A stretch of DNA of 64,000 bases, taken from NCBI GenBank assembly GCA_000230955.3, contig CP007061.1, positions 1-64,000 on the forward strand, given 5' to 3'. Below are positions 26,480-44,085 of the stretch, one piece after another. Made by a program: the position numbers and the translations under genes. The DNA is from Halobacterium sp. DL1. Lineage in GTDB: Archaea > Halobacteriota > Halobacteria > Halobacteriales > Halobacteriaceae. The notes under the pieces were generated by a model. It made no database searches. It was not told the origin of the DNA and saw only the letters and a list, made by a program, of their open reading frames with translations. How positions within the stretch are numbered: the stretch's first letter is position 1; the number at the start of each line of letters is the position of its first letter.

Positions 26480-27044
26480 ATGGAAGTCGATCTCCTCGAC
26501 TTCGTTGAGCAGTGTCGTCGCCTAGTCAAACAAGCGTTGGGAAAGCACGCGGGCGAGCCCGCCAGCGGCGGGTTCGCCCGCTGGAAACACGTTGTGCTAC
26601 ACTGTCTTCGGCTCGAAGACGGCCACAGCTACCGAGAAACGCCGAATCGGCTGAAGTATATGGCCGAGATTCGTGACGCACTCGGCTTAGATCCAGACGA
26701 TCTCCCAGACTACAGCACGATCTACAAGTCGTTTGATCGGCTGAAAATGTGGGTATGGCGGGCGCTGCTGCGCGTTTCCGCGCAGCAGCACCCGCAGTCC
26801 GAACACGCTGCGCTCGACAGCACGTTCTTCGACCGGCGACGTGCGTCATCGTACTTTCGTCAGCGGGCAGGACGAACGATACAGACGCTAAAAGTGACGA
26901 CATTGACTGATGTGGAATCGCTGGCTGTTCTTGACGTGCACATTGCAGCTCGGTGGAAGCACGACACGAAGACGGGACCGCAGGTCGTCCGCCGAAACGC
27001 GGACGACCTGCAGTCGGTTGCCGCCGACAACGGCTTCCAAGACT
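26480..27044 (+). pseudogene. IS5-family transposase, 5' part (split)
   Basis: The first 188 codons, from MEVDLLDFVEQCRRLVKQAL through HAALDSTFFDRRRASSYF (catalytic Asp) to SVAADNGFQD. The frame is cut by the nested element. Joined to 28449 it continues in frame with WHTEYEIAAHDIDYLVHYRG, which gives a transposase of 274 residues. The element is therefore immobile unless helped in trans. Confidence 0.92.
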
Positions 27045-28448
27045 CAGTACTTCACAAAGCCGCTTAGTTAGAACGTCTGCTTGCTGAAGGTGTGTCTAAA
27101 ACCAAACAAGCAGACGGTGAGATCCACGAGGACCAGCTTCTTAACTTTCTCGTCAACCGCCTTGACGAGGAAGTTTCGCTCTCGTTAGCCAATAACGCTG
27201 AAATCACTGCTGAAGACATCTATGAGGTCCTCGTCGGCGCTTGCGCCGACGGGACCTCTGTCTCTACGCTCTGTGCGTCGAGCCAGAACTCACCCGCTGG
27301 GAACACGGTCCTCTACCATCTTCGGACGAAGTTCGAGCCGGAACGGCTCGAACGAGTCGCTAACACGCTCCTGCGAAAGGATCTCGATGAATTGCTCCCC
27401 GAACAGGTGGAGGTCTGCGCAGACCTCCACCTGCGGCCCTACTACGGTGACGAAGACGACACAGACGGCCTCTATCACTCGGTAGCGAAGCGTGGAACCA
27501 CTGCGTTCCACGCCTATGCCACACTCTACGCGCGTGTGAAGAACAAACGCTACACGCTGGCGGTACGCCGTCTCAAAGACGGCGATACCGCAAGTAGTGT
27601 CCTCGCTGAGTTCTTCGGTGTCCTCGACGGCCTTGACGCCGGGGTCAAGGCCGTCTACCTTGATCGCGGATTCTACGACAGTAAGTGTCTCACGCTGCTT
27701 CAGGCGCACAATTACGCGTACGTGATCCCGATCATCCGGTGGGGTGAGGCGATTCAGCAAGAGCTCTCGGAAGGATGGAGTCGCGTCATTCAGCATGATC
27801 TGACGGGGAAACTCGACGGTCACAGCTGGACCGTCGATTTTCCCGTCTACATCGACTGTACGTACCTAAATGGGAAGTATGACGAGAACGGTGTGGCGCG
27901 TCACGGCTACGCCGCTGACGCGCCGTTCATCGACTCACCACGGGACGCTCGATACCACTACTCGAAACGCTTCGGTATCGAGTCAAGCTATCGCTTGTTT
28001 GAGCAAGCGATAGCGACAACGACAACACGAGATCCAACGGTACGGCTGCTGTACGTGGTGGTGAGTCTCCTCTTACAGAACGTCTGGCGGTACCTTCACT
28101 ACGAGTATGTGGCGACGCCCCGCCGAGGCGGGCGTCGCCTCTGGTGGTGGCCGTACAAGGAGTTCGTCAATATGATTCGACGAGCTGCGTGGACGGCCCT
28201 CGCGGTGCGTCGGGCCGTCCCCGCGAATCGGCCACCTGACGACCGATTCCACCGCTAACCACCGACCGAGCAAGCCAGCGGAGTGAGTGGCGACGCTGTC
28301 GCGTCGGCGGCTGACCGCCGCCGACAGCGACAGCTCTCCGTCGATCCGTCCGTAATTCTCTCGTCGAGACCGTCAGTACAACCGCTTCGACACAGAACTC
28401 AGGCCGCAGAAACAGCTAGCCGAGGATGCTTTGTGAGGTACTGAGACT
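27040..28448. mobile_element. ISH27-like element of the ISH3 family, complete
   Basis: 1399 bp from 27045 to 28443 with 16-bp ends CAGTACTTCACAAAGC and, inverted, CAGTACCTCACAAAGC (one mismatch). AGACT is duplicated at 27040-27044 and 28444-28448. Size, end length and 5-bp duplication are those of ISH27-type ISH3-family elements. The copy looks intact and is the youngest insertion in this nest. Confidence 0.93.
27092..28258 (+). CDS. ISH3-family transposase
   Basis: DDE transposase of 388 residues from a GTG start. Acidic triad candidates: VCADLHLRPYYGD, AVYLDRGFYDSK and RFGIESSYRLFEQ, the last being the Y-x-E-x-x-Y/R type region. No frameshift; the gene fills most of the 1399-bp element. 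It should be functional and able to mobilise this copy. Confidence 0.95.
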   Translation: MSKTKQADGEIHEDQLLNFLVNRLDEEVSLSLANNAEITAEDIYEVLVGACADGTSVSTLCASSQNSPAGNTVLYHLRTKFEPERLERVANTLLRKDLDELLPEQVEVCADLHLRPYYGDEDDTDGLYHSVAKRGTTAFHAYATLYARVKNKRYTLAVRRLKDGDTASSVLAEFFGVLDGLDAGVKAVYLDRGFYDSKCLTLLQAHNYAYVIPIIRWGEAIQQELSEGWSRVIQHDLTGKLDGHSWTVDFPVYIDCTYLNGKYDENGVARHGYAADAPFIDSPRDARYHYSKRFGIESSYRLFEQAIATTTTRDPTVRLLYVVVSLLLQNVWRYLHYEYVATPRRGGRRLWWWPYKEFVNMIRRAAWTALAVRRAVPANRPPDDRFHR

Positions 28449-29939: not shown

Positions 29940-31694
29940 ATGAGCAATGAGAGCAGTCGGGTTCAAAGTGGGCTGACAAAGCAAGTTGATGATGTCCTTA
30001 CTGCAGATACTGACTGGATCACACTTGCGAACGAACTGGACGTGAGCCGCTATACGCTACGGGACGCACACCCAGAGTGGAGTTCGTCGCTTCCGTTTCG
30101 GCCAATGTTTCTGGCGTATCTGTGGGCAACTGTCGAGCGTGAATCTCTGTCAGGAATCCCAGAACGCCTCTCTGACCGACCGGAACTCGCCCGTGCATTT
30201 GGGTTTGAGATGGATGATCTCCCCTCAGAAAGTAGCTGTAAACCAGTCCGGCTTGAAAGCCGATTCAGAAAGTTACAGACGGTCGTCGAATCAGGTGCTG
30301 AAGAGATCCGCCTGCTCGCGGCTGAACGAGGCGCACCAATCGGGAATGATCTTCTCAAAACAGCGGACGACGAAGACAAACAGTCGCTGTCAAATCGAAC
30401 CGTCCAACGCTTGCTACGGAAGAAGGGGCATCAGGTGCTTGATGAGTTGAAGTCGGTAGCCATCCCTTCAATCTCACTCTCTCGCCCGGATGACGCGATC
30501 TACGACGACGATGAGTTACTCGTCTTAGAAGCAATCGCGTCGATCAAACAGAAGGCAGCACACGATTCGGGCCAGAAGCTGGGTGACATGAAAAATCCAG
30601 ACCCAGATATTGATGACCCGTTCTACGAGGACGGCCCATCTGGTGAGACGCTGTTGGAAGCCCTCAAGCAGATGTCTATCGAGGAGATTGCGACTGTACT
30701 GAATTTCGCTCTCCGGAAAACCTACACACGCGCGAAACCCCGAATCAGGGAGCTCGAACACGGGAACGGCTCACGGTTTGGGACTCGTGCGAAAGTCGCT
30801 CTGGATATGACGTACGTTGCCTACTATGGCGATCGCGACGAGATGGAATGGGTACAGGGCGCACCTGAAGGAAAAGAGTACAGTTGGTGTCACAAGTTTG
30901 CGACGGTCGTGATCGTCGGCGAGAACACCCACTACGTCGTTGGGGTGTGTCCGCTCGGGAGTACGGATTACGCTGCGACGGACGCCTATCCCGGCAAGGA
31001 TAGTTCCTACTACGTTGGGGATGTTGCACGACAACTTCTCTCGATCGCCGAAGACTATGTCGACATCAGGATGGTGTATGCCGATCGTGAATTTCACGCT
31101 GTAGATGTCCTTCAGACGCTTATTAACAAGCGGTTGGATTACGTAATCCCTGCCAAGAAAGATCAACATCGGATTGGACCGATGTGTGACCGGTTTGACC
31201 AAGTGAAGCAGGGGTATCACGAACCGAATGACACCCCGCTGTATGTCGAGGAGGATTTCGTCATGCACGGTGTAGTGAAGGATGGCGTCTCAAACCACAC
31301 GGTACATACGACCGTTGCCGTGTTACCCCCAGCGGAAGATGATGATGTCCATGAAGAGGGATCGCCACAGCCGTTTATCACCAGTCTCGATGTGAGTGAT
31401 GAGGTCGCACTCGATCGGCGCTGGGCGAAACAGCAGATCGAACAGTACAGTGACCGCGGAGCGATCGAGAACTCGTACTCGTCGATCAAGAACGCAGCAG
31501 CGTGGACTACCTCGAAGGAGTTTGGAGTACGGTGGTTTCATTTCGCCTTCGGGTGTGTGGTCTACAATATGTGGCTGTTAGTCGATTTCCTCACACAAGA
31601 GCGCATTGGGGTCATTGAAACCCGGAAGAAGCCCAGAATCACACTCAGTCGGTTCCTTGATTGGCTGGACAAAGAGCTGATCACACTCATTTAG
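29940..31694 (+). CDS. IS4-superfamily DDE transposase (long form)
   Basis: 584 residues. The N-terminal half is helical, including an HTH-like stretch (WITLANELDVSRYTLRDAHP). The DDE core shows ALDMTYVAYYGDRDEMEW, RMVYADREFHAVDVLQTL and GAIENSYSSIKNAAAWTT. It is longer than ISH3 or ISH6 transposases. I could not identify terminal inverted repeats or a target duplication around it, so the element's limits are unknown. It may have truncated the MFS gene whose tail follows. Confidence 0.8.
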   Translation: MSNESSRVQSGLTKQVDDVLTADTDWITLANELDVSRYTLRDAHPEWSSSLPFRPMFLAYLWATVERESLSGIPERLSDRPELARAFGFEMDDLPSESSCKPVRLESRFRKLQTVVESGAEEIRLLAAERGAPIGNDLLKTADDEDKQSLSNRTVQRLLRKKGHQVLDELKSVAIPSISLSRPDDAIYDDDELLVLEAIASIKQKAAHDSGQKLGDMKNPDPDIDDPFYEDGPSGETLLEALKQMSIEEIATVLNFALRKTYTRAKPRIRELEHGNGSRFGTRAKVALDMTYVAYYGDRDEMEWVQGAPEGKEYSWCHKFATVVIVGENTHYVVGVCPLGSTDYAATDAYPGKDSSYYVGDVARQLLSIAEDYVDIRMVYADREFHAVDVLQTLINKRLDYVIPAKKDQHRIGPMCDRFDQVKQGYHEPNDTPLYVEEDFVMHGVVKDGVSNHTVHTTVAVLPPAEDDDVHEEGSPQPFITSLDVSDEVALDRRWAKQQIEQYSDRGAIENSYSSIKNAAAWTTSKEFGVRWFHFAFGCVVYNMWLLVDFLTQERIGVIETRKKPRITLSRFLDWLDKELITLI

Positions 31695-31898
31695 AGCTCG
31701 ATCTGGGCTAGCCCTTCGCGAGAGGCATCACTCTTTGCTGAGATAGATTTCTACCGATAAGTGTGTTTACTATAATAATTCTGTCTGTATGATAGCTATT
31801 AGAGCGTAATCGCGGCTATTTCTATCGGGTACTGGTCCGAATAGAGTCGATCCCGTGAACGTTTTGACCGGCATTCGCAACTCCACTTCTTCACGGCC

Positions 31899-32192
31899 AT
31901 GTTCGTCAATGGCGGTGTGTCACTCGCGTTCACCGTCGGGCGTCAGCGACACCCCGACGAGGTGAGCGGAACGGTGAGCGGGACAATAAACAGCGTCGGC
32001 TACTTCGGGGCTGCCGTCGTGCCCGCAGTAATGGGTATGGTGCTCGATGTCTTCTGGACCGGGAAGATCGTCGACGGCACGCCCGTGTACTCCTTTACAG
32101 GCTATCGTGTTGCGTTCGGTATCGCCACAGTTGCCGGCTTCGCGGCCCTCGCGTGTGCACTCTGGATTCACCAGACTCGACGGCCAAGATAG
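31899..32192 (+). pseudogene. C-terminal remnant of an MFS transporter
   Basis: The frame gives FFTAMFVNGGVSLAFTVGRQ, then a TM helix NSVGYFGAAVVPAVMGMVLD and a last one in YRVAFGIATVAGFAALACAL, ending in the basic tail HQTRRPR. This is the last quarter of a major facilitator transporter. Upstream in the same frame there is a stop (about 31850) and no further MFS sequence. The rest was lost, probably with the transposase insertion next door. Confidence 0.7.
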
Positions 32193-32504
32193 CGTTGTGC
32201 GACCAGCGTACCGACTCGTGAGCATCAAGAGACCACACGCGATCCCGTACCGACGAACACCGCCGTTTTCAGCGTGCGTCCACGGCGACCCGAGCGGTGC
32301 TGGTACTGCCTCCATGCCGCTTCCCGGTCGAGTAACATGACACCGATGGCAGCACCACGGACCGCAGGCCGTCGCAGACTCTCAACACAACCCACATCAC
32401 ATTGACACGGAGACGCCCTCAAACGACCGGTCCAGCACTTCCGCTTCGTCGCCAGTGTATAATCGGCTCTACCCTTCCGCCTTCTCCGGATTGAACAGAG
32501 CAGA
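32193..32504. other. Gene-free stretch
   Basis: 312 bases between the MFS remnant and the Lrp gene. I see no reading frame with coding character, no inverted repeats and no IS ends. The GC content is like that of coding DNA, so it may be decayed sequence. Confidence 0.4.
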
Positions 32505-33026
32505 TCACTCAATTTTTTCTACCGTCTCGTCGAGTCCGTGCGAGTTCAGTAACGTCTCTTCAGAGTAATCGCGCAATATCCCTACGCTCTCATCTGCCTT
32601 GATCGAACTGATCACAAACTTCGAACTCGTCCGTTGGATTCCGTCAACAGCCTCAAACTCCTCAACAAGCGTTTCAACCATATCACGAGACGGAAGCCGT
32701 GAAATAACAATGAAATCAGTATCTCCCATCATGAAATAAACTTCATTTACCCCCTCAATCTCGGCTAACGCCTTCCCAACCTCTTCCTGATACCCTTCTC
32801 CGAACTCGGCGAGCACTTCGGAAATAACCGTGAGACCCAATCCAGCCTTTTCGAAATCGATCTCAAATAAATCATTTTTGATCACCCCTCGGTCCTTCAT
32901 ATTCTTGATGCGGTAATGGACCGTCGATTTAGGGATATTCGTCTCCTCCTGTATGCGTTCCGGGCTGGTAGAGTCGTTCTCCGCGATCGAGCGTAGAATA
33001 CGAACGTCCCGAGCATCAAGACTCAT
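32505..33026 (-). CDS. Lrp/AsnC-family regulator
   Basis: 173 residues from the ATG at 33026. N-terminal HTH: DARDVRILRSIAENDSTSPE then IPKSTVHYRIKNMKDRGVI. The C-terminal RAM ligand domain includes GVNEVYFMMGDTDFIVISRL. Typical of haloarchaeal Lrp proteins that sense amino acids. The C-terminal tail of about 25 residues is longer than usual. It faces the queC operon tail to tail with its own promoter; the target is unknown. Confidence 0.85.
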   Translation of the reverse strand: MSLDARDVRILRSIAENDSTSPERIQEETNIPKSTVHYRIKNMKDRGVIKNDLFEIDFEKAGLGLTVISEVLAEFGEGYQEEVGKALAEIEGVNEVYFMMGDTDFIVISRLPSRDMVETLVEEFEAVDGIQRTSSKFVISSIKADESVGILRDYSEETLLNSHGLDETVEKIE

Positions 33027-33148
33027 CTGAAACGCACCCCTGAACAGTTCCAACCACACATCGATCGGACACCAATCATACTTATCCCGTGTCGGTAGAC
33101 GAATAAATATACTTGCCTCGGAAGACTAGACCCTTCGTGACCGGTAAA

Positions 33149-33838
33149 TCACGAAAACTCCGGCCGCTCTGCGTACGCGATCGGATCGCGTGACCCAGCA
33201 TTCCGGAACGCCTCAAGCCGGAACGCACACGCATCACACGTCCCACACGCTGGCTCCTCATCGCGGTAACACGACCACGTCATGTCGTACGGCACGTCAA
33301 GCTCCAACCCACGCTTCGCGATCTCCGTTTTCGACCACTCAACGAACGGCGCTTTCAACTCGATCGCTGTCTCCGGCTTCGTCCCGACATCAATGACGTT
33401 CTGAAACGCATCGAAAAAAGCCGGGCGACAGTCGGGATACCCGGAGAAGTCCTCGGAGTGCGCCCCGATAAACAGCGCCTCCGACTCAGTCGCCTCCGCG
33501 TACGAGGTCGCCATAGACAACAGATTCGCGTTCCGGAAGGGAACGTACGACGTCGGAATCTCGTCACTCTCCATATCGGCGTCAGCCACCTCCATCTCCT
33601 CATCCGTCAGGCTCGACGCCCCGATCTGAGAGAGATGCCCCGTCTCGATATGGAGAAAGTCAGCCGCATCGACCTCCTCGGCAAGCGCTTTCGCACACTC
33701 GTACTCCTTGTCTTCGGTGCGCTGTCCGTACGACGTGTGGAGGAAGTACGGCTCGTACCCCTGCTCGATCGCCTCGTACACCGCCGTCGCACTATCCATC
33801 CCGCCGGACACCAGAATCACCGCGCTTTTGTTGCTCAT
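33149..33838 (-). CDS. queC: QueC, 7-cyano-7-deazaguanine synthase
   Basis: Converts 7-carboxy-7-deazaguanine to preQ0 with ATP and ammonia; in archaea preQ0 is the precursor of archaeosine at tRNA position 15. The PP-loop SGGMDSATAV is at residues 10-19, followed by HTSYGQRTEDKE. The zinc-binding cysteines are SCYRDEEPACGTCDAC near the C-terminus. 229 residues, normal length. It is the last gene of the queD-queE-queC cluster; a gap of about 110 bases separates it from queE. Confidence 0.95.
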   Translation of the reverse strand: MSNKSAVILVSGGMDSATAVYEAIEQGYEPYFLHTSYGQRTEDKEYECAKALAEEVDAADFLHIETGHLSQIGASSLTDEEMEVADADMESDEIPTSYVPFRNANLLSMATSYAEATESEALFIGAHSEDFSGYPDCRPAFFDAFQNVIDVGTKPETAIELKAPFVEWSKTEIAKRGLELDVPYDMTWSCYRDEEPACGTCDACAFRLEAFRNAGSRDPIAYAERPEFS

Positions 33839-33950
33839 GATTGCTCAGTTGCGTCGAATCGATTTTCGCTCTGTACACCACGCCGACTGCGACGCTCCCA
33901 TCGCGTTGGGAGTACCGCACTACCTCGACCAGACTGGCCCAGTACAACGC

Positions 33951-34727
33951 TCATGTTCCCGGGGCGTCGTTCCACAGGTCAACGTGGAGGCGCGGCGTGT
34001 ACCGGTAGCCGTACTCCATCGCTAACTCGGCGACCTCACTTCGTGTTCCATCAAGTTGCTCCCGCGTCATTCCCTCCGGCATCAACAACACGTCATCATC
34101 GGCGACGGTCGTCGCCGTCGCTTCTCGCACCCGATCAACCAGGTCCGTGATCTGTGGGAGATCCGACGCATCTGTCACGACGAACTTCAGTTGCGTCTCG
34201 TAGTCGTCGACCATCTGGGACAGCGCATCCATATCGATCCGGTTCTGTTCGTGTTTCTCTTCCCACTCACCCTCCCCCTTCGGGTCACGGTCCGGTGTCG
34301 GCGTGCTGCTCGCCAGTTTCGGGCTGATACTCGCCAGATCGATCGGCGCGTCCCGGTAAATCGTCCCGTTCGTCTCCACCGTCGTATGATACCCGTCTGC
34401 AGCCAGTCGTTCCAAAAGTTCGATGGACTCCTCGTGGATAAGCGGCTCTCCGCCCGTGAGAACGACATGATTCGCCTGCTCGTGGGAGTGAACCTCCTCA
34501 ATGATCGAGTCGACGTCGCGCCACGCCCCGGTCGGCTCCCACGACGTATGGTACGAGTCACAGAACCAACACCGCAGGTTACACCCAGACGTCCGCACAA
34601 ACACGGAGGGCACACCAGCAAGCGTTCCCTCGCCCTGCAGCGAGTAGAACACCTCGTTGATCGGGAGCCCCTCACCAGCCGCGTCAACATCCGTTGCGGG
34701 CTCCTCGACATCGCTAGCGACCGGCAT
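33951..34727 (-). CDS. queE: QueE, 7-carboxy-7-deazaguanine synthase
   Basis: Radical SAM enzyme that rearranges 6-carboxytetrahydropterin to 7-carboxy-7-deazaguanine. The cluster motif GCNLRCWFC is CxxxCxxC, and VLTGGEPL is the conserved GGEP. 258 residues from the ATG at 34727, which overlaps the queD stop (TGATG). An upstream extension of the frame runs across queD and is a shadow. Confidence 0.95.
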   Translation of the reverse strand: MPVASDVEEPATDVDAAGEGLPINEVFYSLQGEGTLAGVPSVFVRTSGCNLRCWFCDSYHTSWEPTGAWRDVDSIIEEVHSHEQANHVVLTGGEPLIHEESIELLERLAADGYHTTVETNGTIYRDAPIDLASISPKLASSTPTPDRDPKGEGEWEEKHEQNRIDMDALSQMVDDYETQLKFVVTDASDLPQITDLVDRVREATATTVADDDVLLMPEGMTREQLDGTRSEVAELAMEYGYRYTPRLHVDLWNDAPGT

Positions 34728-35188
34728 CAGTACGATGCACAGAGCTCGCCGGTTTCGCTCACCGACACCGATACGTCCGAGACGGTGTCCGGGAACGCGT
34801 CGAGCATTCGCTGTTCGAGGAGGACGCTCATCACCTCTGCCGTCGGTGGATGATCGAGGACGACGAGGGCATCGCTGTCGCCCGACGCTTCGAACGCGTC
34901 GACGAGCGGATCGCCTTCTTCGACGAGGAACCGGTGGTCCCACGCGTCGATGACGTCCGTGACGTCGCCTTTGTCGACGACCCACCCCTCCTCGGTGAGT
35001 TGGCCGGTCACTTCGACGGTGATCTCGTAGTTGTGCCCGTGTGGCCGTGAGCACTTCCCCTCGTGATGGAGGATTCGGTGGCCCGAGCTGATCCGAATCG
35101 GGTTGCCTGCTCCAATTTGGAGTGTTCGTTGGCCTGCTTCGGCCAGGTCTACTATCGTAGAATCATCTCTTGATATGCTTTGAGACAT
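34727..35188 (-). CDS. queD: QueD, 6-carboxytetrahydropterin synthase
   Basis: PTPS-family enzyme that makes 6-carboxytetrahydropterin from dihydroneopterin triphosphate. The zinc histidines are in SSGHRILHH and PHGHNYEI, and the catalytic Cys is in EGKCSRPHGH. 153 residues from the ATG at 35188; the longer frame to 35230 adds a hydrophobic start not seen in the family. First gene of the que cluster. Essential-type modification genes on a plasmid-like segment are notable. Confidence 0.93.
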   Translation of the reverse strand: MSQSISRDDSTIVDLAEAGQRTLQIGAGNPIRISSGHRILHHEGKCSRPHGHNYEITVEVTGQLTEEGWVVDKGDVTDVIDAWDHRFLVEEGDPLVDAFEASGDSDALVVLDHPPTAEVMSVLLEQRMLDAFPDTVSDVSVSVSETGELCASY

Positions 35189-35224
35189 ATCCGAAGAATA
35201 TAGGGCGAGGATATAAGCATTGAG

Positions 35225-35463
35225 TTTCATCGGCTCTGTCGGATCCTACTCCTTCAGACCGGTTCGCAAGCAGAACAGTCGCTCAGCAACGAAGCCATAT
35301 TGACCACCGAGTGTTCCACCAATTCAAAGAGGAGTTCCGATAGCCGTGCGAGATACAACGCGCGTATACAGCAACAAACGACAAGTCAATTCACGCGATA
35401 CCATCGTTGAGGCGTTCGATTTCGGCCATAGACACTCTGCAGTCGAGCGCCTCGTCCTCTAAC
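35225..35463. other. Diverged IS-end-related sequence
   Basis: 35225 begins GGCTCTGTCGGATC, close to the IS end GGCTCTGTTGAAATCC seen at 7045, 25451 and 25772. Further on, CGATAGCCGTGCGAGATACA (about 35338-35357) matches CGATAACCGTGCGAGATACA near 25890. No gene is present. This is a decayed member of the same element family. Confidence 0.45.
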
Positions 35464-35679
35464 TTAACGCGACCGCGTCCAGCTGGCGAACATTGATACT
35501 CCAAACAGAATCACGAGTGCGACGGTCCATGCTGTCCACCCGAGCCAGAACGTCCAGTTGCGGGTGCCGTGGGGCCAGAACCGGCCTGACTGGCTCCGGA
35601 TACGAACGAGAAGCCCACCGAGTAGTATCCCTCTGGACAGGAGTCCAAGCCCGAACAGCACTGTCGTAGTGACTGACAT
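35464..35679 (-). CDS. Small membrane protein next to copper ATPase
   Basis: 71 residues with two hydrophobic segments: VTTTVLFGLGLLSRGILLGG and WLGWTAWTVALVILFGVSMF, separated by RIRSQSGRFWPHGTRNW. The middle resembles the start of haloarchaeal isoprenylcysteine methyltransferase-like membrane proteins, so it could be a truncated relative. It lies 15 bases downstream of the CopB-type ATPase and may be co-transcribed. Confidence 0.5.
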   Translation of the reverse strand: MSVTTTVLFGLGLLSRGILLGGLLVRIRSQSGRFWPHGTRNWTFWLGWTAWTVALVILFGVSMFASWTRSR

Positions 35680-35694
35680 GGCTGAGATTGTGGG

Positions 35695-38028
35695 TTACGC
35701 AGGTACTGAGAGGTCGACGTTCCCCAGTCTGCGAGCGTTGATCGCGACGATGATCGTCGACAGCGACATGAACACGGCGCCGATCGCCGGCGACAGGAGG
35801 ATGCCGATGGGAGCGAGGATTCCCGCCGCAAGCGGGAGCGCGAACACGTTGTAGCCGGTCGCCCAGACGAGGTTCTCCTGCATCTTCCGGTAGCTCGCCT
35901 TCGACAGTCGGATGAGCCGCACCACGTCCAGCGGGTTATTGTCGACGAGGATGATATCCCCCGACTCGATGGCGACATCGGTCCCCGAGCCGATGGCGAT
36001 ACCGACGTCTGCTCTCGTGAGCGCCGGTGCGTCGTTGACGCCGTCGCCGACCATCGCGACGAATTTTCCTTCGGACTGGAGTTGTTCGACCTTCGTGTCC
36101 TTCTCCTCGGGCAGGACCTCCGCGAAGTACTGGTCAATACCGAGTTCCTCTGAGACAGCCCTCGCGACATCCTCGGAGTCGCCGGTCAGCATCGCCACCT
36201 CGATGTCCATCGCGTGTAGCGCCTCGATAGCCTGCCGACTTTCGTCCCGGATAACGTCCGCGAGCGCGAATGCTGCGACGACTTCGGATTCGTCGTGAAC
36301 CAGATAGATGACCGTCTCTGCGTTCGAACCGGCTTCCTCAGCGAAGGCAGCGATGCCGTCGGATCGTTCGATACCGAGTTTCTCAATCAGGTTCGGTCCA
36401 CCGATATGAACCGTCTCACCGTCCACGGTGGCTCTGACGCCGAGACCGCGAAAGTTCTCGAAGTTCGAAACGCTCGCTCGCTGGACGTCTCGTTCCTCGG
36501 CGGCGTCCCGGATGGCGCGAGCGATCATGTGTTCGGAGTCACCCTCGACACCAGCGGCGACTTCGAACGCTCGCTCCTCACTCCAGTCGTCTGCCGTCTC
36601 GACGCCGACGACACCCTGCTCGCCCTTCGTGAGCGTCCCGGTCTTGTCGAATATCACCGTATCGAGGTTCCGGGCTTCCTCCATGGCAATCCGGTCGCGG
36701 ATGAGCATCCCGTTCTGGGCAGCCGTCGAGGTGTTGATCGCGACCACGAGCGGAACTGCGAGTCCGAGCGCGTGCGGGCACGCGATGACGAGAACTGTGA
36801 CTACGCGTTCGAGAACACCGATGTTGAACCCCGTGGCGACGACCCACGCGACGGCCGTAATCGCCGCGACGCCGAGTGCCACGTAGAACAGCCAGCCAGC
36901 TGCGCGGTCTGCGAGCAACTGGGTTCGAGATTTCGATTTCTGGGCTTCATCAACGAGCCGCATGATGCCCGCCAACGTCGTCTCCTCGCCCGTCTTCGTG
37001 ATTTTGATGCGGAGACTTCCGTCTTGGTTGACCGTCCCGGCGACGACCTCCACTCCGGGCGCTTTGTCAACGGGACGGGACTCGCCCGTGATCATCGACT
37101 CGTCGACGGACGACTCGCCTTCGACGACTTCGCCGTCGGCAGGCACGCTCGTGCCCGGACGGACGAGTACGACATCGTTTTCGCCGAGTTCGGAAACGGG
37201 TACTTCCTCGGTATCCCCGCTCTCGGTGATACGCTCGGCGGTGTCAGGCATGAGTTTCGCCAGTTCGTCGAGCGCGCCGGAGGCCTGTCGGACCGACCGC
37301 ATCTCCATCCAGTGGCCCAAGAGCATGATGTCGATCAGCGTAACGAGTTCCCAGAAGAACGGCGTCGTCCCCTCGAGGAACAAACTGCCGATGGAGTAGA
37401 CGAACGAGACGGTGATCGCCAGCGAGATGAGCATCATCATCCCCGGCTCGCGGTTCTCGAGTTCCGTCCGGGCCATCGAGAGGAACGGCACGCCACCGTA
37501 CGCGAAGATGATCACCGAAAGAACCGGCGTGATCCAGACGCTTCCGGGGAACGTCGGCGCTGTGTAGCCGAAGACATCCTGAATGAACTCGCTGAAGAAG
37601 ATGACTGGCACCGAGAGCGCGAGCGATACCCAGAACCGCCGCCGGAACATCCGCTCGTGACCCGAGTGATCGGTGTGGGCCCCGTGATCTTCGTGCTCTC
37701 CCTCGTGAACGTCCGCGCCGTGGTCGTGGTCGTGTTCGTCCCCCCCAGTATGGGCGTGGGTAGCCTCGGCGTGGCTGTGTCCGGACTCGACTTCGTGATC
37801 GTGGTGTGAGTGTTCGTCGGTGCCTCCGGGTTCCGTGGTGGTCTCGTCCGTCCGGTCGTGGTTCGCGTGCTCGGAGGAGTGGGGAGGCTCCGTGGCGGAT
37901 GAGGAATCTGGCGCTCGCCTCCCTCCATTTGCTTCTAACTGGCAGATACGGCAGCAGTAGACGGGCCCCCCGGAATCAGTTTCCGACGAAGAGTCCCGGA
38001 TACGCTCGTGGTCTGGATGCTTGCTCAT
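35695..38028 (-). CDS. copB: CopB-type (CPH) copper-exporting P-type ATPase
   Basis: P1B-ATPase of 777 residues that would export copper across the membrane. The metal-site motif in the sixth helix is CPH ([14 protein letters not shown]), which marks the CopB subgroup. The phosphorylation site is [11 protein letters not shown], with TGDS and [10 protein letters not shown] downstream. The N-terminus has a Cys cluster ([10 protein letters not shown]) and a long His-rich run of about 90 residues ([28 protein letters not shown]) instead of an HMA domain. The ATG at 38028 is chosen; the longer frame adds ten residues. Confidence 0.94.
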
Positions 38029-38151
38029 AGATTGTGTGTTGGTACCGCACCTCATTATTCTATTCGGAGCCTGATACTGTGCGGGACGATCAGGGCAAGC
38101 GGACTCGGAAGAGAACGACGGGGCGGTCGTCCGCGAACGTTCTGGGTGCTC

Positions 38152-38238
38152 TCAGGCGTGGGCGGTGTATCCAGCCTCTTCGACGATCTGTTCACAATGG
38201 CTGCAGGTCATTCCCTCGACGCTGATCGTGTGACTCAT
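38152..38238 (-). pseudogene. CopZ-like HMA gene with internal deletion
   Basis: A frame of 28 codons starts MSHTISVEGMTCSHCEQIVE with the GMTCxHC metal motif and ends directly with EAGYTAHA, the usual last residues of haloarchaeal HMA proteins. The middle 35-40 residues of the normal 65-residue fold are missing, in frame. The deletion joins two similar GAAGAGG-type stretches, so recombination between short repeats is likely. The remaining peptide cannot form the ferredoxin-like fold but keeps the Cys pair. Confidence 0.75.
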
Positions 38239-38371
38239 GCCAGTGAGAGATACGGACGGCTCCTCTTTGTCGTTTGCTGCTTCGATACTGCTGTTCGAAC
38301 GGCCATGAAACGACGTATTCCAAAGTGTCTTCTGGAGAATAGTATCGCATCTTGCGTCCTTTTCTGCCAGT

Positions 38372-38931
38372 ATGCGGGACTTGGACGAAACAGACATGGA
38401 GATTCTCTCGCTGTTAGCCGAGAACGCCCGTCGCTCGTTCAGCGCGATCGGCGAGGAAGTCGGCCTCTCGGGACCAGCCGTCTCAGATCGCGTCACACGG
38501 CTCCAAGAGACGGAATCATCAACCACTTCACTATCAATGTCGACCGTAGCCGACTCAGAGCTGGTGTGCCGATACTCGTCAAGCTAGATCTCCCGTCCGA
38601 GTCGTTCGATGCGGTACGCGAGCGGGTCAGAAACGACGACGCCGTCGAGTTCGCACTCACGTGTGCCGAGTGCAGCAATACTGTGGATTCTGAGGGGGAA
38701 ACGAGTCGTGTCGGCGGAGAGCTCTATCATTTCTGTTGTCCATCGTGTCAGAGACGTGACTCGCCGTCTGAAATCGAAGATGAGCCCCATCAGCGTGGAG
38801 AACGGTGCGAGCAGTTGAGTACCACACCAGCCAGCCGAGGAAACTACTGCCGGCTGAATACGCCGCCGCTGCGTCGTTTGACCAGCTGCGAATACAGGCG
38901 GCTACACAACGCCCAAGAAAAGCAGTACTGA
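38372..38931 (+). pseudogene. Lrp-TRASH copper regulator, frameshifted
   Basis: Frame 1 from 38372 gives an AsnC-type HTH: MRDLDETDMEILSLLAENAR, AIGEEVGLSGPAVSDRVTRL, ending in LQETESSTT. The continuation lies in another frame: ETGIINHFTINVDRSRLRAG, then CAECSNTVDSEG and LYHFCCPSC, the TRASH metal domain. One missing G in ACGGAATC (about 38511) explains the shift. HTH plus TRASH proteins regulate copper ATPases in haloarchaea, and this one lies between copB and copA. The sequence after CCPSC does not look like the usual end, so the 3' border is uncertain (about 38760). Confidence 0.75.
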
Positions 38932-39000
38932 AAGCGCAATCAGCTTGAAAAGCGAGCGACCAGCGGATCGACATCCACTCCGGAGCCCGGGGCACTGGAG

Positions 39001-39186
39001 TCACGTTGTCCGAACGCGTTGATACAGCGCAACAGAGAGTTCCACGACAGCTACGCCGGCGCCGATAGCTAACGCGACTTCTGGCCCTCGGAGGAGGTAA
39101 CCGAGGGCGGCAGCACCCACCACACCGACGACAGAAAGGGCGATTCGAGTACGAAATCGAACGGAATCCGTGTTTGTTTGAGTCAT
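39001..39186 (-). CDS. Small two-helix membrane protein
   Basis: 61 residues: a polar start MTQTNTDSVRFRTR, one long hydrophobic segment IALSVVGVVGAAALGYLL, a second in EVALAIGAGVAVVELSVALY, and a basic end. It lies 32 bases downstream of the halocin-like gene on the same strand. Small membrane proteins next to bacteriocin genes can give immunity or aid export; here that is only a suggestion from position. Confidence 0.5.
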   Translation of the reverse strand: MTQTNTDSVRFRTRIALSVVGVVGAAALGYLLRGPEVALAIGAGVAVVELSVALYQRVRTT

Positions 39187-39218
39187 GATTTATAATACGC
39201 AAGGAGAAAGATAAGAGT

Positions 39219-40190
39219 TCAGTTACAGTACCCTGCGACAATACAGACGTACCCTGAGCCAAGTCCACAGCCGACACGTGAAATCGCCTCGACGACCAAC
39301 AGACAGCCCCCGGAACAGATCAGATAGCCCCCGATAGTAGTAATCAGAGGCAGACACCGCACTAGACAGGTACTTTGGCTGAGGCGACCCCCTCCGAGTT
39401 TGCACAGGATACCGACCAGCGTAGTACATTGGAAACAGGAGAGTATCGAGCTTTCGGATACCTGCGCCGTGGAGAGAGCCCCGGAGCCTGTCCCTACCGA
39501 GTTCAACGAACTGGAACTGTTCTGGTCCTGGTTCGGGCGACGAGCATTTCGGATGGGAAGTTTGGTCGTCTGGGATCCGACCATTGCTGGCTCTTCGCCG
39601 GCCTGATCTTGGCCGAACGTCATCAGCTTGGCCTGGAACTGCCCAGCGTCTGAAGCACCGTTGTCAACTCTTTCGATGGTTTTTGCTCCTGACTGTGTTG
39701 GGTGAGAAGCAACCCCGAATGCGGTTGCCGCTTGACGCTCGCCTTCTTGTACGACGGTGACGGCAAACAATGCACCGACGTTCGCTGGATCGGTCTGTCC
39801 AGTTGTGTCCCGAGGATCGACCGGACGGTTGCCAACGGGTTCAAAAGGAACGATCACTACCCGAGGATCTATATCGTTCAGATCAGGATCGGTTGTCTCA
39901 ACATCGACGGAAACTATGCCAGAGGGCTGCATCTTCCCTTCGGATCGCATCGCAGCTTTGAGCTTGTTGATTTCCGGATTATTCAGCGCCATAGCGGTCG
40001 CTCGGGGAACCTCGTCACCCGCACGTACTTCGACATCAGTTGCTTCGAAGTCGGGGTCGTCAGATGCTCGGGATTTCGGCTCGGTCGATCCTTTACTCCC
40101 GGCAGCCATTCCGGACAGCCCACCGAACCCAGCAACACCAGCCAATGAGGCAACTGCCCCTATAGTACGATATGGAAACACGCACAGCAC
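39219..40190 (-). CDS. Halocin C8-like bacteriocin precursor, N-terminus cut short
   Basis: The last 80 residues or so are hydrophobic with ten cysteines ([49 protein letters not shown]). Halocin C8 is a 76-residue, ten-cysteine peptide cut from the C-terminus of a precursor whose N-terminal part gives immunity. Here too a polar domain of about 200 residues precedes it ([20 protein letters not shown]). The start [21 protein letters not shown] minus its last residue looks like the hydrophobic core of a Tat signal, but the twin-arginine part is missing: the frame runs out in MLCVFPYRT over the copA start. It may be a displaced, silent gene. Confidence 0.7.
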
Positions 40191-42772
40191 ATCTCGACGT
40201 CACGGGGATGACTTGTGCCAACTGCTCGGGGACAGTTGGCGACGCCTTGGAGTCACTCGACGGCGTCATCGAAGCGAACGCCAATTTCGCCACGGACGAA
40301 GGCTCCGTCGAGTACGACCCTGACGAGGTATCGCTTGCAGAGATCTACGAGACGATCGAGGACGCCGGCTACGGTGCGGTGTCTGACACGGTGACCATCG
40401 GCATCTCCGATATGACCTGTGCCAACTGTGTGCAGACGAACGAGACCGCACTCGAGGACACGCCAGGTGTCATCGCGGCCGAGGCGAACTTCGCCACCGA
40501 CGAAGCGCAGGTCAGGTACAACCCCGCGGACACGTCACTCGACGCGCTCTACGACGCTATCGAGGACGCTGGTTACTCGCCGGTCCGTGAAGACAGCGAC
40601 AGCGGTGAATCGGGTGAAGATGCTCGAGACACTGCACGACAGGGTGAGATTCGAAAACAGCTCCGTCTGACACTATTCGGAGCCATACTGTCGGCCCCGA
40701 TGCTGTTTTTCCTCGCAGAGAAGTTTCTGCTCGGCGGGGGAATTCTCCCGGAGACGGTCTTCGGCGTCGAATTCGGGTGGGTCGAATTCCTGTTGGCGAC
40801 ACCCGTTCAGGTCGTGCTCGGCTGGCCGTTCTACAAGAACTCGTACAACGCGCTGGTCAACAACAGGCGCGCCAACATGGACGTTCTCATCGCACTGGGT
40901 TCGTCCACTGCGTATTTCTACTCAGTCGCGGTACTTGCCGGATTGATCGCGGGGAGTTTGTACTTCGACACTGCCGCGCTGATCCTCGTGTTCATCACGC
41001 TCGGCAACTATCTCGAAGCCCGCTCGAAAGGGCAGGCAGGTGACGCCCTTCGGAAACTCCTCGAAATGGAGGCCGAGACGGCCACCCTCGTCGACGAGGA
41101 CGGTATCGAAGTGGAAGTGCCACTGGAGGATGTCACCGTGGGCGACCGCATGAAGGTCCGTCCCGGCGAACAGATCCCGACCGACGGCGTCGTCATCGAC
41201 GGGCAGAGCGCTGTTGACGAGTCGATGGTCACCGGCGAGTCCGTCCCCGTCGAGAAAGGTGAGGGCGACGAGGTCGTCGGGTCCACCATTAACGAGAACG
41301 GTGTCCTCGTCGTTGAGGCGACGAAGGTCGGTGCGGACACGGCGCTCCAGCAGATCGTCCAGACAGTCAAGGAAGCCCAGTCCCGCCAGCCAGACATCCA
41401 GAATCTCGCCGACCGCATCTCGGCGTACTTCGTCCCAGCGGTCATCGCGAACGCGGTCCTCTGGGGCGTCGTCTGGTACCTCCTCCCCGCGACTCTTGCG
41501 GACTTCGTCGAGGTAATCCCGCTGTGGGGACTCGTCGCAGGTGGCCCCGTCGCCGCAGGAGGGGTCTCAGTCTTCGAGTTCGCGCTCATCGTCTTCGCGT
41601 CGTCCGTGTTGATCGCCTGTCCCTGTGCGCTGGGGTTAGCGACGCCTGCGGCAACGATGGTTGGGACGACGATCGGTGCCCAGAACGGCGTTCTGTTCAA
41701 GGGTGGTGACATCCTCGAACGCGCGAAAGACGTCGACACGGTCGTCTTCGACAAGACGGGCACGCTGACGAAAGGCGAGATGGAACTGACAGACGTCGTC
41801 GTCTTCGACGGTGACGGTCAGCCGATCACAGACGGCGGCCAACTAACCGGACGTGACCGTCTCAGCGAAAACGACGTGTTGCGGCTCGCAGCCACGGCCG
41901 AGAGCGGGAGCGAACACCCCCTCGCCCGGGCCATCGTCGACGGAGCCAGAGATCGCGGCATCGACGTGAGCGACCCCGACGACTTCGAAAACGTCCCCGG
42001 CCACGGCATCCGCGCAACCGTCGGCGACAGCGAGGTGCTGGTCGGTAACCGAAAGTTCCTCCGCGATAACGGGATCGACCCCTCGCCCGCTCAGGAAACG
42101 ATGGAGCGCCTCGAGAACGAGGGGAAGACGGCGATGCTCGTCGCCCGCGTGCCCGCTGGCACGGACGAGGGCGAACTCGTCGGTGTGGTCGCTGACGCCG
42201 ACACGGTCAAAGAAAGCGCGAAGGACGCTGTGAGCCAGCTGCAGGAGCGCGGCGTCGACGTGATGATGATCACCGGCGACAACGAGCGGACCGCTCGTGC
42301 CGTCGCCGAGCAGGTCGGGATCGACCCCGAGAATGTCCACGCTGAGGTGCTCCCCGAGGACAAGTCTGATGCCGTCGAGGCCATCCAGGATGAAGGCCGC
42401 AAGGCAATGATGGTCGGGGACGGTGTCAACGATGCACCAGCGCTCGCGGTCGCGTACGTCGGAACCGCGATCGGGAGCGGGACGGACGTCGCCATCGAAG
42501 CGGCGGACGTGACGCTGATGCGCGACGACCCGCTGGACGTGGTGAAGGCCATCCGCATCTCGGACGCGACACTCCAGAAGATCAAGCAGAACCTCGTGTG
42601 GGCGCTTGGTTACAACACGGCGATGATCCCGTTGGCTTCACTCGGGCTGCTTCAGCCCGTCCTCGCCGCCGGCGCGATGGCCTTCTCGAGTGTGTCGGTG
42701 CTGTCGAACAGTCTACTGTTCCGTCGGTACACTCCGGATCACGATTACGAGCTCCTCGGCCGCCTCCGGTGA
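40172..42772 (+). CDS. copA: CopA-type copper-exporting P-type ATPase
   Basis: P1B-1 ATPase of 866 residues, cytosolic copper export. Two N-terminal HMA domains with GMTCANCSG (about residue 11) and DMTCANCVQ (about 80). The metal-site motif is CPC ([14 protein letters not shown]), phosphorylation site [11 protein letters not shown], hinge [10 protein letters not shown]. The ATG at 40172 starts [18 protein letters not shown]. The start overlaps the divergent halocin-like frame by 19 bases, so its promoter must lie within that gene. With the CPH ATPase at 35695 it gives the replicon two copper pumps. Confidence 0.96.
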
Positions 42773-42783
42773 ACTACCCCACC

Positions 42784-44082
42784 CTACTCGCTCACGGCTG
42801 ACGCCGTTCGCTCCTTGAGGGTGTCGTCAGAACTCTCCGAGTTCTGACTGCTAACCCGAAGTCTTTGACTTCTGGTGATGGGGCTTCCTGTTTCGATGAC
42901 GCGCTTTGCAGACACAACGGTGTCCGTAGGGAGCGCAGTCTCCACAGGCGTTGATTCGGAGTGAACCACTCCTATATTTTTAAGACCGCGAGAAAGAATG
43001 TTCCACGCTGCGTTCGCGTCCCTGTCCGCCTCAAACCCACACGAGGGACACGAGTGTTCACGAACCCACAACGGCTTGTCCGTCTTGACGCCGCAAGACG
43101 CGCACGCTTTCGTCGTGTTCCTTGGATCGACTTCGGCAAAGTGTGTTCCTTCGCGTTCGCACTTGTACTCAAGCATTCGAAGGAACGTTCCCCACGCCGC
43201 TCCCGCCCGATTCCGTGAGTTTCCGGGGAGTTCGACCAACTCCTTCGCGTCGAGGCCTTCGACCGCTACGAGGTCGTATTCGGTGGCGTAGTAGTTCGAG
43301 AGTTTGTGAAGGAAGTCACGACGCTTTCGCTTGAGATCGGCGTGGCGCTCGGCCACAACTTGCCGTTGTCTCTCCCAATTCGCGGAACCGCGTTCCTTCT
43401 GCGAAAGATCATGCTGTGCGCGTTCCAACCGCTCGCGTTCGTCAGATAAGTCGAGCGATTCGACGGCGGTGCCGTCTGTGTCATGGGCGTACTTCAAGAT
43501 GCCAACGTCAATCCCGACACATCGATCTGGGTCGGTCGGTTTCTCAGGAGTCTCTTTATCGCCGACGGTGAATGAAGCGAACCATTCACCGGTTGACTCC
43601 TTCTTAATCGTGATTTCTTTGACAGTCTCGGCGTCAGGAATTGCGCGGTGTTTGATGAGGGGAATATCCGCAAGTTTCGACAGCGACAGTACGGGTTGGC
43701 CGTTCTTACTATCGAACTCGAAGCCAGACTGTATGTAGGTGAAACTACGGAAATCCTTGGGGGCCTTCCAATTGAGACTGCCCACGTTGTAGCCGTTCTG
43801 CTTCAACTGAGAGAGGGCTTTGATGCTGTCTTCGATACGCATGACAGCAGCTTGTGCGACCGTTGAATAGACATCGTTCAGCTCATCCCACCAGTCTTTG
43901 AGGCTGGTGAGCTGATCGCGTACTTGTCGCACTCGTTGGTTAAGTGTACCCGCCGATTTGGGAATTTGCTTGAATTCGTTGAGTGCGTGGTTGTAGAGTT
44001 GCCTACAGGTATCTCGGTGATGATCCAACAGTTCACGCTGTTCAGGCGTGGGATCAAGCCGAAATCTGTAGGTGTAGTGCAT
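42784..44082 (-). CDS. tnpB: TnpB RNA-guided nuclease
   Basis: 432 residues. RuvC motifs: GIDVGILKYAHD (Asp), LVAVEGLDAKEL (Glu) and DRDANAAWNI (Asp). The zinc finger has KACASCGVKT and HSCPSCGFEAD. The N-terminus YRFRLDPTPEQRELLDHHRD is the standard TnpB start. All catalytic residues are present. Its guide RNA (reRNA) would be encoded at and beyond the 3' end of the gene, about 42750-42950. The ATG follows the DUF2080 gene stop by three bases. Confidence 0.94.
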   Translation of the reverse strand: MHYTYRFRLDPTPEQRELLDHHRDTCRQLYNHALNEFKQIPKSAGTLNQRVRQVRDQLTSLKDWWDELNDVYSTVAQAAVMRIEDSIKALSQLKQNGYNVGSLNWKAPKDFRSFTYIQSGFEFDSKNGQPVLSLSKLADIPLIKHRAIPDAETVKEITIKKESTGEWFASFTVGDKETPEKPTDPDRCVGIDVGILKYAHDTDGTAVESLDLSDERERLERAQHDLSQKERGSANWERQRQVVAERHADLKRKRRDFLHKLSNYYATEYDLVAVEGLDAKELVELPGNSRNRAGAAWGTFLRMLEYKCEREGTHFAEVDPRNTTKACASCGVKTDKPLWVREHSCPSCGFEADRDANAAWNILSRGLKNIGVVHSESTPVETALPTDTVVSAKRVIETGSPITRSQRLRVSSQNSESSDDTLKERTASAVSE

Positions 44083-44085
44083 TGG

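What the first reader, a model, noticed from the sequence alone, without database searches (positions are those of the whole stretch)
39219..40190. Halocin C8-like precursor that has lost its Tat motif and overlaps copA
A ten-cysteine hydrophobic C-terminal peptide after a polar domain of about 200 residues is the halocin C8 plan. The N-terminal hydrophobic core of a Tat signal is there but the RR part is absent; the frame runs into the divergent copA start. Either a junction cut the gene, or secretion uses another route. Spacing of the ten Cys differs from halocin C8, so it may be a new subtype.
Basis: partly seen in the sequence, partly recalled or inferred. Interest (0 to 1): 0.75.

Follow-up and report, generated by a model that had tools for sequence, protein, structure and literature searches.

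The report
Truncated halocin gene fused to copA
This is a broken copy of a gene for a halocin (a peptide antibiotic that salt-loving archaea use against each other): it was pasted, without its promoter and the start of its secretion signal, in front of a copper-pump gene, while intact copies in other species still carry the secretion signal.

Summary
The ORF exists at 39219-40190(-) and matches the halocin C8-like family (TIGR04449, 48.1 bits, cut-off 24). The missing Tat RR is not a new secretion route. Intact 374-aa copies on a Halorubrum trapanicum plasmid and in Halolamina pelagica read MEESD...[21 protein letters not shown]. In the window this homology stops at 40156; from that base on the DNA matches copA, 100% identical to a genome (G064) whose replicon size fits Halorubrum lacusprofundi. 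That genome has the same copper island without the halocin; in the window a block of about 1.4 kb replaces about 119 bp just upstream of copA. From 38803 to the break the block is identical to DL31 plasmid DNA, where IS66 breaks the same gene. So this is a recently captured gene without promoter, start and RR. The "new subtype" claim is partly right: the Cys spacing (2-7-11-3-12-3-11-7-5) differs from halocin C8, but belongs to a supported 11-member clade of the same family. New here: a 61-aa two-TM ORF lies directly downstream, and such small membrane ORFs follow 23 of 54 family members against 11 of 276 control genes.

The parts
39219..40156 (-). 5'-truncated halocin C8-like precursor gene (last 312 codons; ORF as called runs to GTG at 40190)
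   Evidence: 97.6% DNA identity over 38947-40156 to intact Hrr. trapanicum and Halolamina pelagica copies, no indels in the coding part; TIGR04449 48.1 bits
39222..39440 (-). ten-cysteine C-terminal halocin domain, spacing 2-7-11-3-12-3-11-7-5
   Evidence: TIGR04449 residues 251-321; spacing
40156..40157 (.). right junction: halocin DNA ends, copA leader DNA begins, at most one shared base
   Evidence: junction alignment of window, intact halocin loci and G064 copA
40157..40190 (-). spurious 5' end of the called ORF (copA leader and copA codons read antisense), including the GTG
   Evidence: DNA identical to the G064 copA leader and start
38754..40155 (.). inserted block replacing about 119 bp between the AsnC-type regulator and copA
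   Evidence: G064 matches 30240-38756 at 99.98% and 40156-44084 at 100%, with 119 bp in place of the block
38757..38802 (.). 46-bp filler of unknown origin at the left edge of the block
   Evidence: no second copy in 391 genomes with up to 3 mismatches; no meaningful hit in plasmids
38803..38991 (-). repeat that in DL31 also lies past a tnpB-type locus (probable insertion-sequence end)
   Evidence: 93.7% to L015 4875-5063; 31-bp core also about 67 bp past tnpB in L014
39001..39186 (-). 61-aa two-TM ORF, 32 bp downstream of the halocin stop; candidate accessory/immunity protein
   Evidence: present in all four near-identical copies; family-wide enrichment
40172..42772 (+). copA, copper-translocating P-type ATPase; native leader upstream of -16 replaced by halocin DNA
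   Evidence: TIGR01511 554 bits; leader comparison
38374..38756 (+). AsnC-type regulator with TRASH-like Cys motif: frameshifted also in G064, and here its last codons are replaced by the block
   Evidence: three-frame translations of window and G064

Best explanation
A disrupted, horizontally captured halocin C8-like gene. In the intact form the protein is a 374-aa precursor: polar N-region, twin-arginine signal (NRRSVLQKT + [18 protein letters not shown]), a middle domain of about 200 residues, and a C-terminal hydrophobic ten-Cys peptide. By analogy with halocin C8 it would be exported by Tat and cut to release the peptide. An IS66-free version of the DL31-type gene gave a fragment of about 1.35 kb (halocin gene minus promoter, start and RR, plus a small two-TM ORF and 3' flank). 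That fragment, with 46 bp of filler, replaced about 119 bp in front of copA in a copper island shared with a Halorubrum lacusprofundi-like genome. In the window the gene has no promoter and no authentic start, and any product would lack RR, so it is most likely a very young pseudogene. Shown: the truncation, its position, both parental sequences, and intact RR-bearing copies. Inferred: direction (halocin DNA inserted), loss of function, mode of action.
For: Family match 48.1 bits against a 24-bit cut-off. Intact copies with RR in two other genera, gene sequence identical between them. Homology ends at 40156 and copA homology begins at the same base, in G064 and in several other haloarchaea with a conserved copA leader. 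G064 carries the collinear island (12.4 kb at 99.98-100%) without the block. Block 38803-40129 identical to DL31 plasmid phalar01, with the stretch to 40156 on the far side of its IS66. 47 of 56 family members of usable length show RR plus a hydrophobic run by an automatic test, and the halocin C8 orthologue L019 has RR further in. dN/dS 0.10 against the intact copies, from 18 substitutions, so the gene was under constraint before the break. Long ~100%-identity regions shared between genera are described for Deep Lake haloarchaea (PMC6011602).
Against: The remaining reading frame is undamaged and identical to DL31 over the shared stretch, so decay has not started and low-level translation from the GTG cannot be excluded. 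I found no test of halocin activity for this subclade.
Confidence: 0.9

Rival explanations
1. The shortened gene is functional and the precursor leaves the cell without RR, by Sec or another route, using the remaining hydrophobic stretch.
For: The N-terminus is still hydrophobic (mean 1.59 over [15 protein letters not shown]) and the frame is open.
Against: The first 11 residues are copA antisense; upstream is copA coding DNA and the native upstream region is absent; intact homologs use RR.
Confidence: 0.04
2. The fragment is kept as an orphan immunity module: the middle domain (HalI-like) and the two-TM ORF protect against halocin made by neighbours, while the toxin part is no longer exported.
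For: In halocin C8 one precursor gives both the peptide and the immunity peptide HalI (PMC11509114). The two-TM ORF is intact. Two independent breaks (IS66 in DL31, the copA junction here) both fall within about 36 bp in the signal-peptide region.
Against: No native promoter left for the halocin frame; the middle domain was not shown to be related to HalI; two events are too few to show selection.
Confidence: 0.08
3. The junction is an assembly artefact joining two repeats.
For: Both sides are nearly identical to sequences in other replicons, and mobile elements are near.
Against: No repeat at the junction (one shared base); the own genome holds one copy of the halocin; assembly of 2 contigs, 99.8% complete.
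Confidence: 0.04

Closest known systems
Halocin C8 (ProC8/HalC8/HalI)
   Same: Precursor plan: Tat signal (in intact copies), middle domain, C-terminal hydrophobic ten-Cys peptide; matches the same family model TIGR04449.
   Different: Cys spacing 2-7-11-3-12-3-11-7-5 against 2-7-3-7-13-7-8-8-5; separate well-supported clade; two-TM ORF downstream, absent behind HalC8 orthologues; this copy lacks promoter, start and RR.
Hrr. trapanicum pCBA1232-01 halocin C8-like protein WP_197427780.1
   Same: Same gene, 98.7% protein identity over residues 13-323.
   Different: Intact, 374 aa, with RR and its own upstream region next to a divergent HTH gene.
DL31 phalar01 Halar_0292
   Same: DNA identical over 38803-40129.
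   Different: Broken by IS66 with an 8-bp target duplication, 5' part with RR still present on the other side.

Membership tests
Halocin C8-like domain (TIGR04449) | Profile score over the curated cut-off | tested here: met
   48.1 bits, cut-off 24, full 69 positions
Halocin C8-like domain (TIGR04449) | C-terminal ten-Cys domain | tested here: met
   ten Cys in the last 72 residues
Halocin C8-like precursor | Tat signal with RR | tested here: not met
   absent in this copy, present in intact orthologs
Halocin C8 proper (HalC8) | HalC8 Cys spacing 2-7-3-7-13-7-8-8-5 | tested here: not met
   2-7-11-3-12-3-11-7-5. That L019 is HalC8 rests on my memory of the HalC8 sequence.
Halocin C8 proper (HalC8) | HalC8 clade in a tree | tested here: not met
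   falls in an 11-row clade with support 100/99, apart from the HalC8 rows; root is midpoint only
Halocin C8 proper (HalC8) | N-terminal part gives immunity (HalI) | not testable with these tools
   needs expression and a sensitivity assay
Halocin | Secreted peptide inhibits other haloarchaea | not testable with these tools
   needs supernatant assay of an intact-copy strain

The most novel reading that the evidence does not exclude
The halocin C8-like family holds at least two kinds of peptide with different Cys frameworks, and many members, unlike HalC8 itself, come with a separate small two- or four-TM membrane protein encoded directly downstream that serves as immunity or accessory protein. 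The window carries a stranded copy of such a pair.
Probability: 0.4. Interest if true: 0.5.

Novelty: new member of a known kind. Interest (0 to 1): 0.35.

Why it matters
It removes a claim of halocin secretion without Tat and shows the exact break. It also documents a fresh gene break inside DNA exchanged between haloarchaeal genera, and points to intact copies (Halorubrum trapanicum, Halolamina pelagica) and to a small downstream membrane protein as the right objects for testing what this halocin subclade does and how producers protect themselves.

Tried and rejected
Pfam gives no match for the precursor. Viral contigs hold no relative. The source of the 46-bp filler was not found in the own genome, plasmids or 391 genomes. 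The small two-TM ORF matches no Pfam or NCBIfam family. The chance 'RRDVL' just upstream of the GTG was rejected as a Tat motif: no start codon lies before it and it is copA antisense. A first extraction of family members used wrong orientation for minus-strand loci and was redone. Structure prediction was not run: family members from the genome search do not fall under the tool's stated inputs and a single-sequence model would say little. The paper on HalI immunity (PMC2566001) is not held.

Full report
OBSERVATION. The ORF 39219-40190(-) is present: 323 aa from a GTG, ten Cys in the last 72 residues. NCBIfam TIGR04449 (halocin C8-like domain) matches residues 251-321 with 48.1 bits against a cut-off of 24; Pfam has no match. 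It is the only copy in its genome.

WHERE THE RR WENT. Hrr. trapanicum plasmid pCBA1232-01, Halolamina pelagica, and DL31 plasmid phalar01 carry the gene at 98-100% protein identity; G026 and G089 in the unnamed set have contigs of the same lengths as the first two. The match starts at residue 12, 13 or 22, never at 1. The intact Hrr. trapanicum gene encodes 374 aa: [82 protein letters not shown]..., annotated as a halocin C8-like domain protein; the Halolamina copy is identical. In DNA, homology with the window ends at 40156. In nine other haloarchaea the copA leader aligns with the window starting exactly at 40156. The printed junction leaves at most one ambiguous base: window ...GAGGCAACTG|CCCCTATAGTACGATATGG; halocin ...GAGGCAACTG|TTTTTTGTAGTAC; G064 copA ...GGAGTAG|CCCCTATAGTACGATATGG. 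The first 11 codons of the called ORF are therefore copA and copA-leader DNA read backwards. An RR pair occurs in frame just before the GTG, but a TGA stops the frame with no start codon between them.

THE EVENT. G064 matches the window over 30240-38756 (99.98%) and 40156-44084 (100%); between these it has 119 bp where the window has about 1.4 kb. Because the G064 copA leader is conserved in other haloarchaea, the window form is the derived one (inference). The block consists of 46 bp of unknown origin, then 38803-40129 identical to DL31 phalar01, and the stretch up to 40156 is identical to DL31 on the far side of an IS66 insertion. DL31's own copy reads [20 protein letters not shown] up to the IS66, and the 8-bp sequence GGTTCGGT is repeated on both sides of the element. 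So the same gene is broken twice, by different events, within about 36 bp. The donor sequence must have been free of the IS66 (inference). G064's 525,943-bp contig fits the 525-kb secondary replicon of Hrr. lacusprofundi ACAM34, and sharing of long ~100% regions among Deep Lake genera is described in PMC6011602. That the window comes from the Deep Lake Halobacterium DL1 is my inference from its two replicons and these identities.

CONSEQUENCES. The halocin frame has lost its native upstream region, start and RR. Between the window and the intact copies there are 14 synonymous and 4 non-synonymous differences and no indel over about 311 codons (dN/dS about 0.10), so the gene was under constraint until recently and the break is young. 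copA lost its native DNA upstream of about -16, and the neighbouring AsnC-type regulator, already frameshifted in G064, lost its last codons. Whether copA is still expressed is open.

FAMILY CONTEXT. TIGR04449 rings in 43 of 391 Halobacteria genomes. I read 58 members. An automatic test finds RR plus a hydrophobic run in 47 of 56 of usable length; at least one of the nine others, L019, has RR further in, and others have frames that begin late. That count may include the window's own frame (L026), whose chance RR I do not accept as a Tat motif. HalC8 orthologues (L019 and relatives, recognised from my memory of the HalC8 sequence) have Cys spacing 2-7-3-7-13-7-8-8-5. The window's 2-7-11-3-12-3-11-7-5 is shared exactly by L045 and nearly by several others, which form a clade of 11 rows with the window, support 100/99 (midpoint root, several long branches).

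SMALL MEMBRANE PARTNER. A 61-aa ORF with two predicted hydrophobic segments starts 32 bp after the halocin stop (39001-39186, minus) and is present in all near-identical copies. Under one fixed rule (start within 110 bp, 50-140 aa, two or more hydrophobic segments), 23 of 54 family members, the window and its near-identical copies left out, have such an ORF downstream, against 11 of 276 control genes (Fisher p about 7e-13, which ignores relatedness among members; the rule was fixed after a first look at the same loci). HalC8 orthologues have none. No Pfam or NCBIfam family matches. An immunity or accessory role is a guess from position and topology; only 3 amino-acid and 2 silent differences separate the window and Hrr. 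trapanicum versions, too few to test selection.

VERDICT. A genuine halocin C8-like gene of a non-HalC8 subclade, cut by a junction at 40156 and very probably dead.

Noticed in passing
window 39001-39186 (-): 61-aa two-TM ORF directly downstream of the halocin; small 2- to 4-TM ORFs follow 23 of 54 halocin C8-like genes elsewhere but not HalC8 orthologues.
   Followed up: partly
window 38374-38756 (+): AsnC-type regulator with a TRASH-like Cys motif next to copA is frameshifted in the window and in G064, and its 3' end is replaced by the inserted block.
   Followed up: partly
window 38152-38526 (-): CopZ-like heavy-metal chaperone reading frame appears internally shortened: only about 20 of 62-66 model positions match.
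   Followed up: no
window 30240-44084: Copper island 99.98-100% identical to a 525,943-bp replicon of another genus, interrupted only by the halocin block; the shared stretch may extend left of 30240, where the compared locus ends.
   Followed up: partly
window 27044-28444: Element 100% identical to an ISH3-type transposase region of DL31 plasmid phalar01.
   Followed up: no
L015 6398-7999: IS66 insertion with 8-bp target duplication in the signal-peptide codons of the DL31 copy of the same halocin gene.
   Followed up: yes
L014 4829-5620 (-): Divergent HTH gene (HVO_A0261_N and FilR1_middle domains) next to the intact halocin gene, also in DL31; possible regulator.
   Followed up: no
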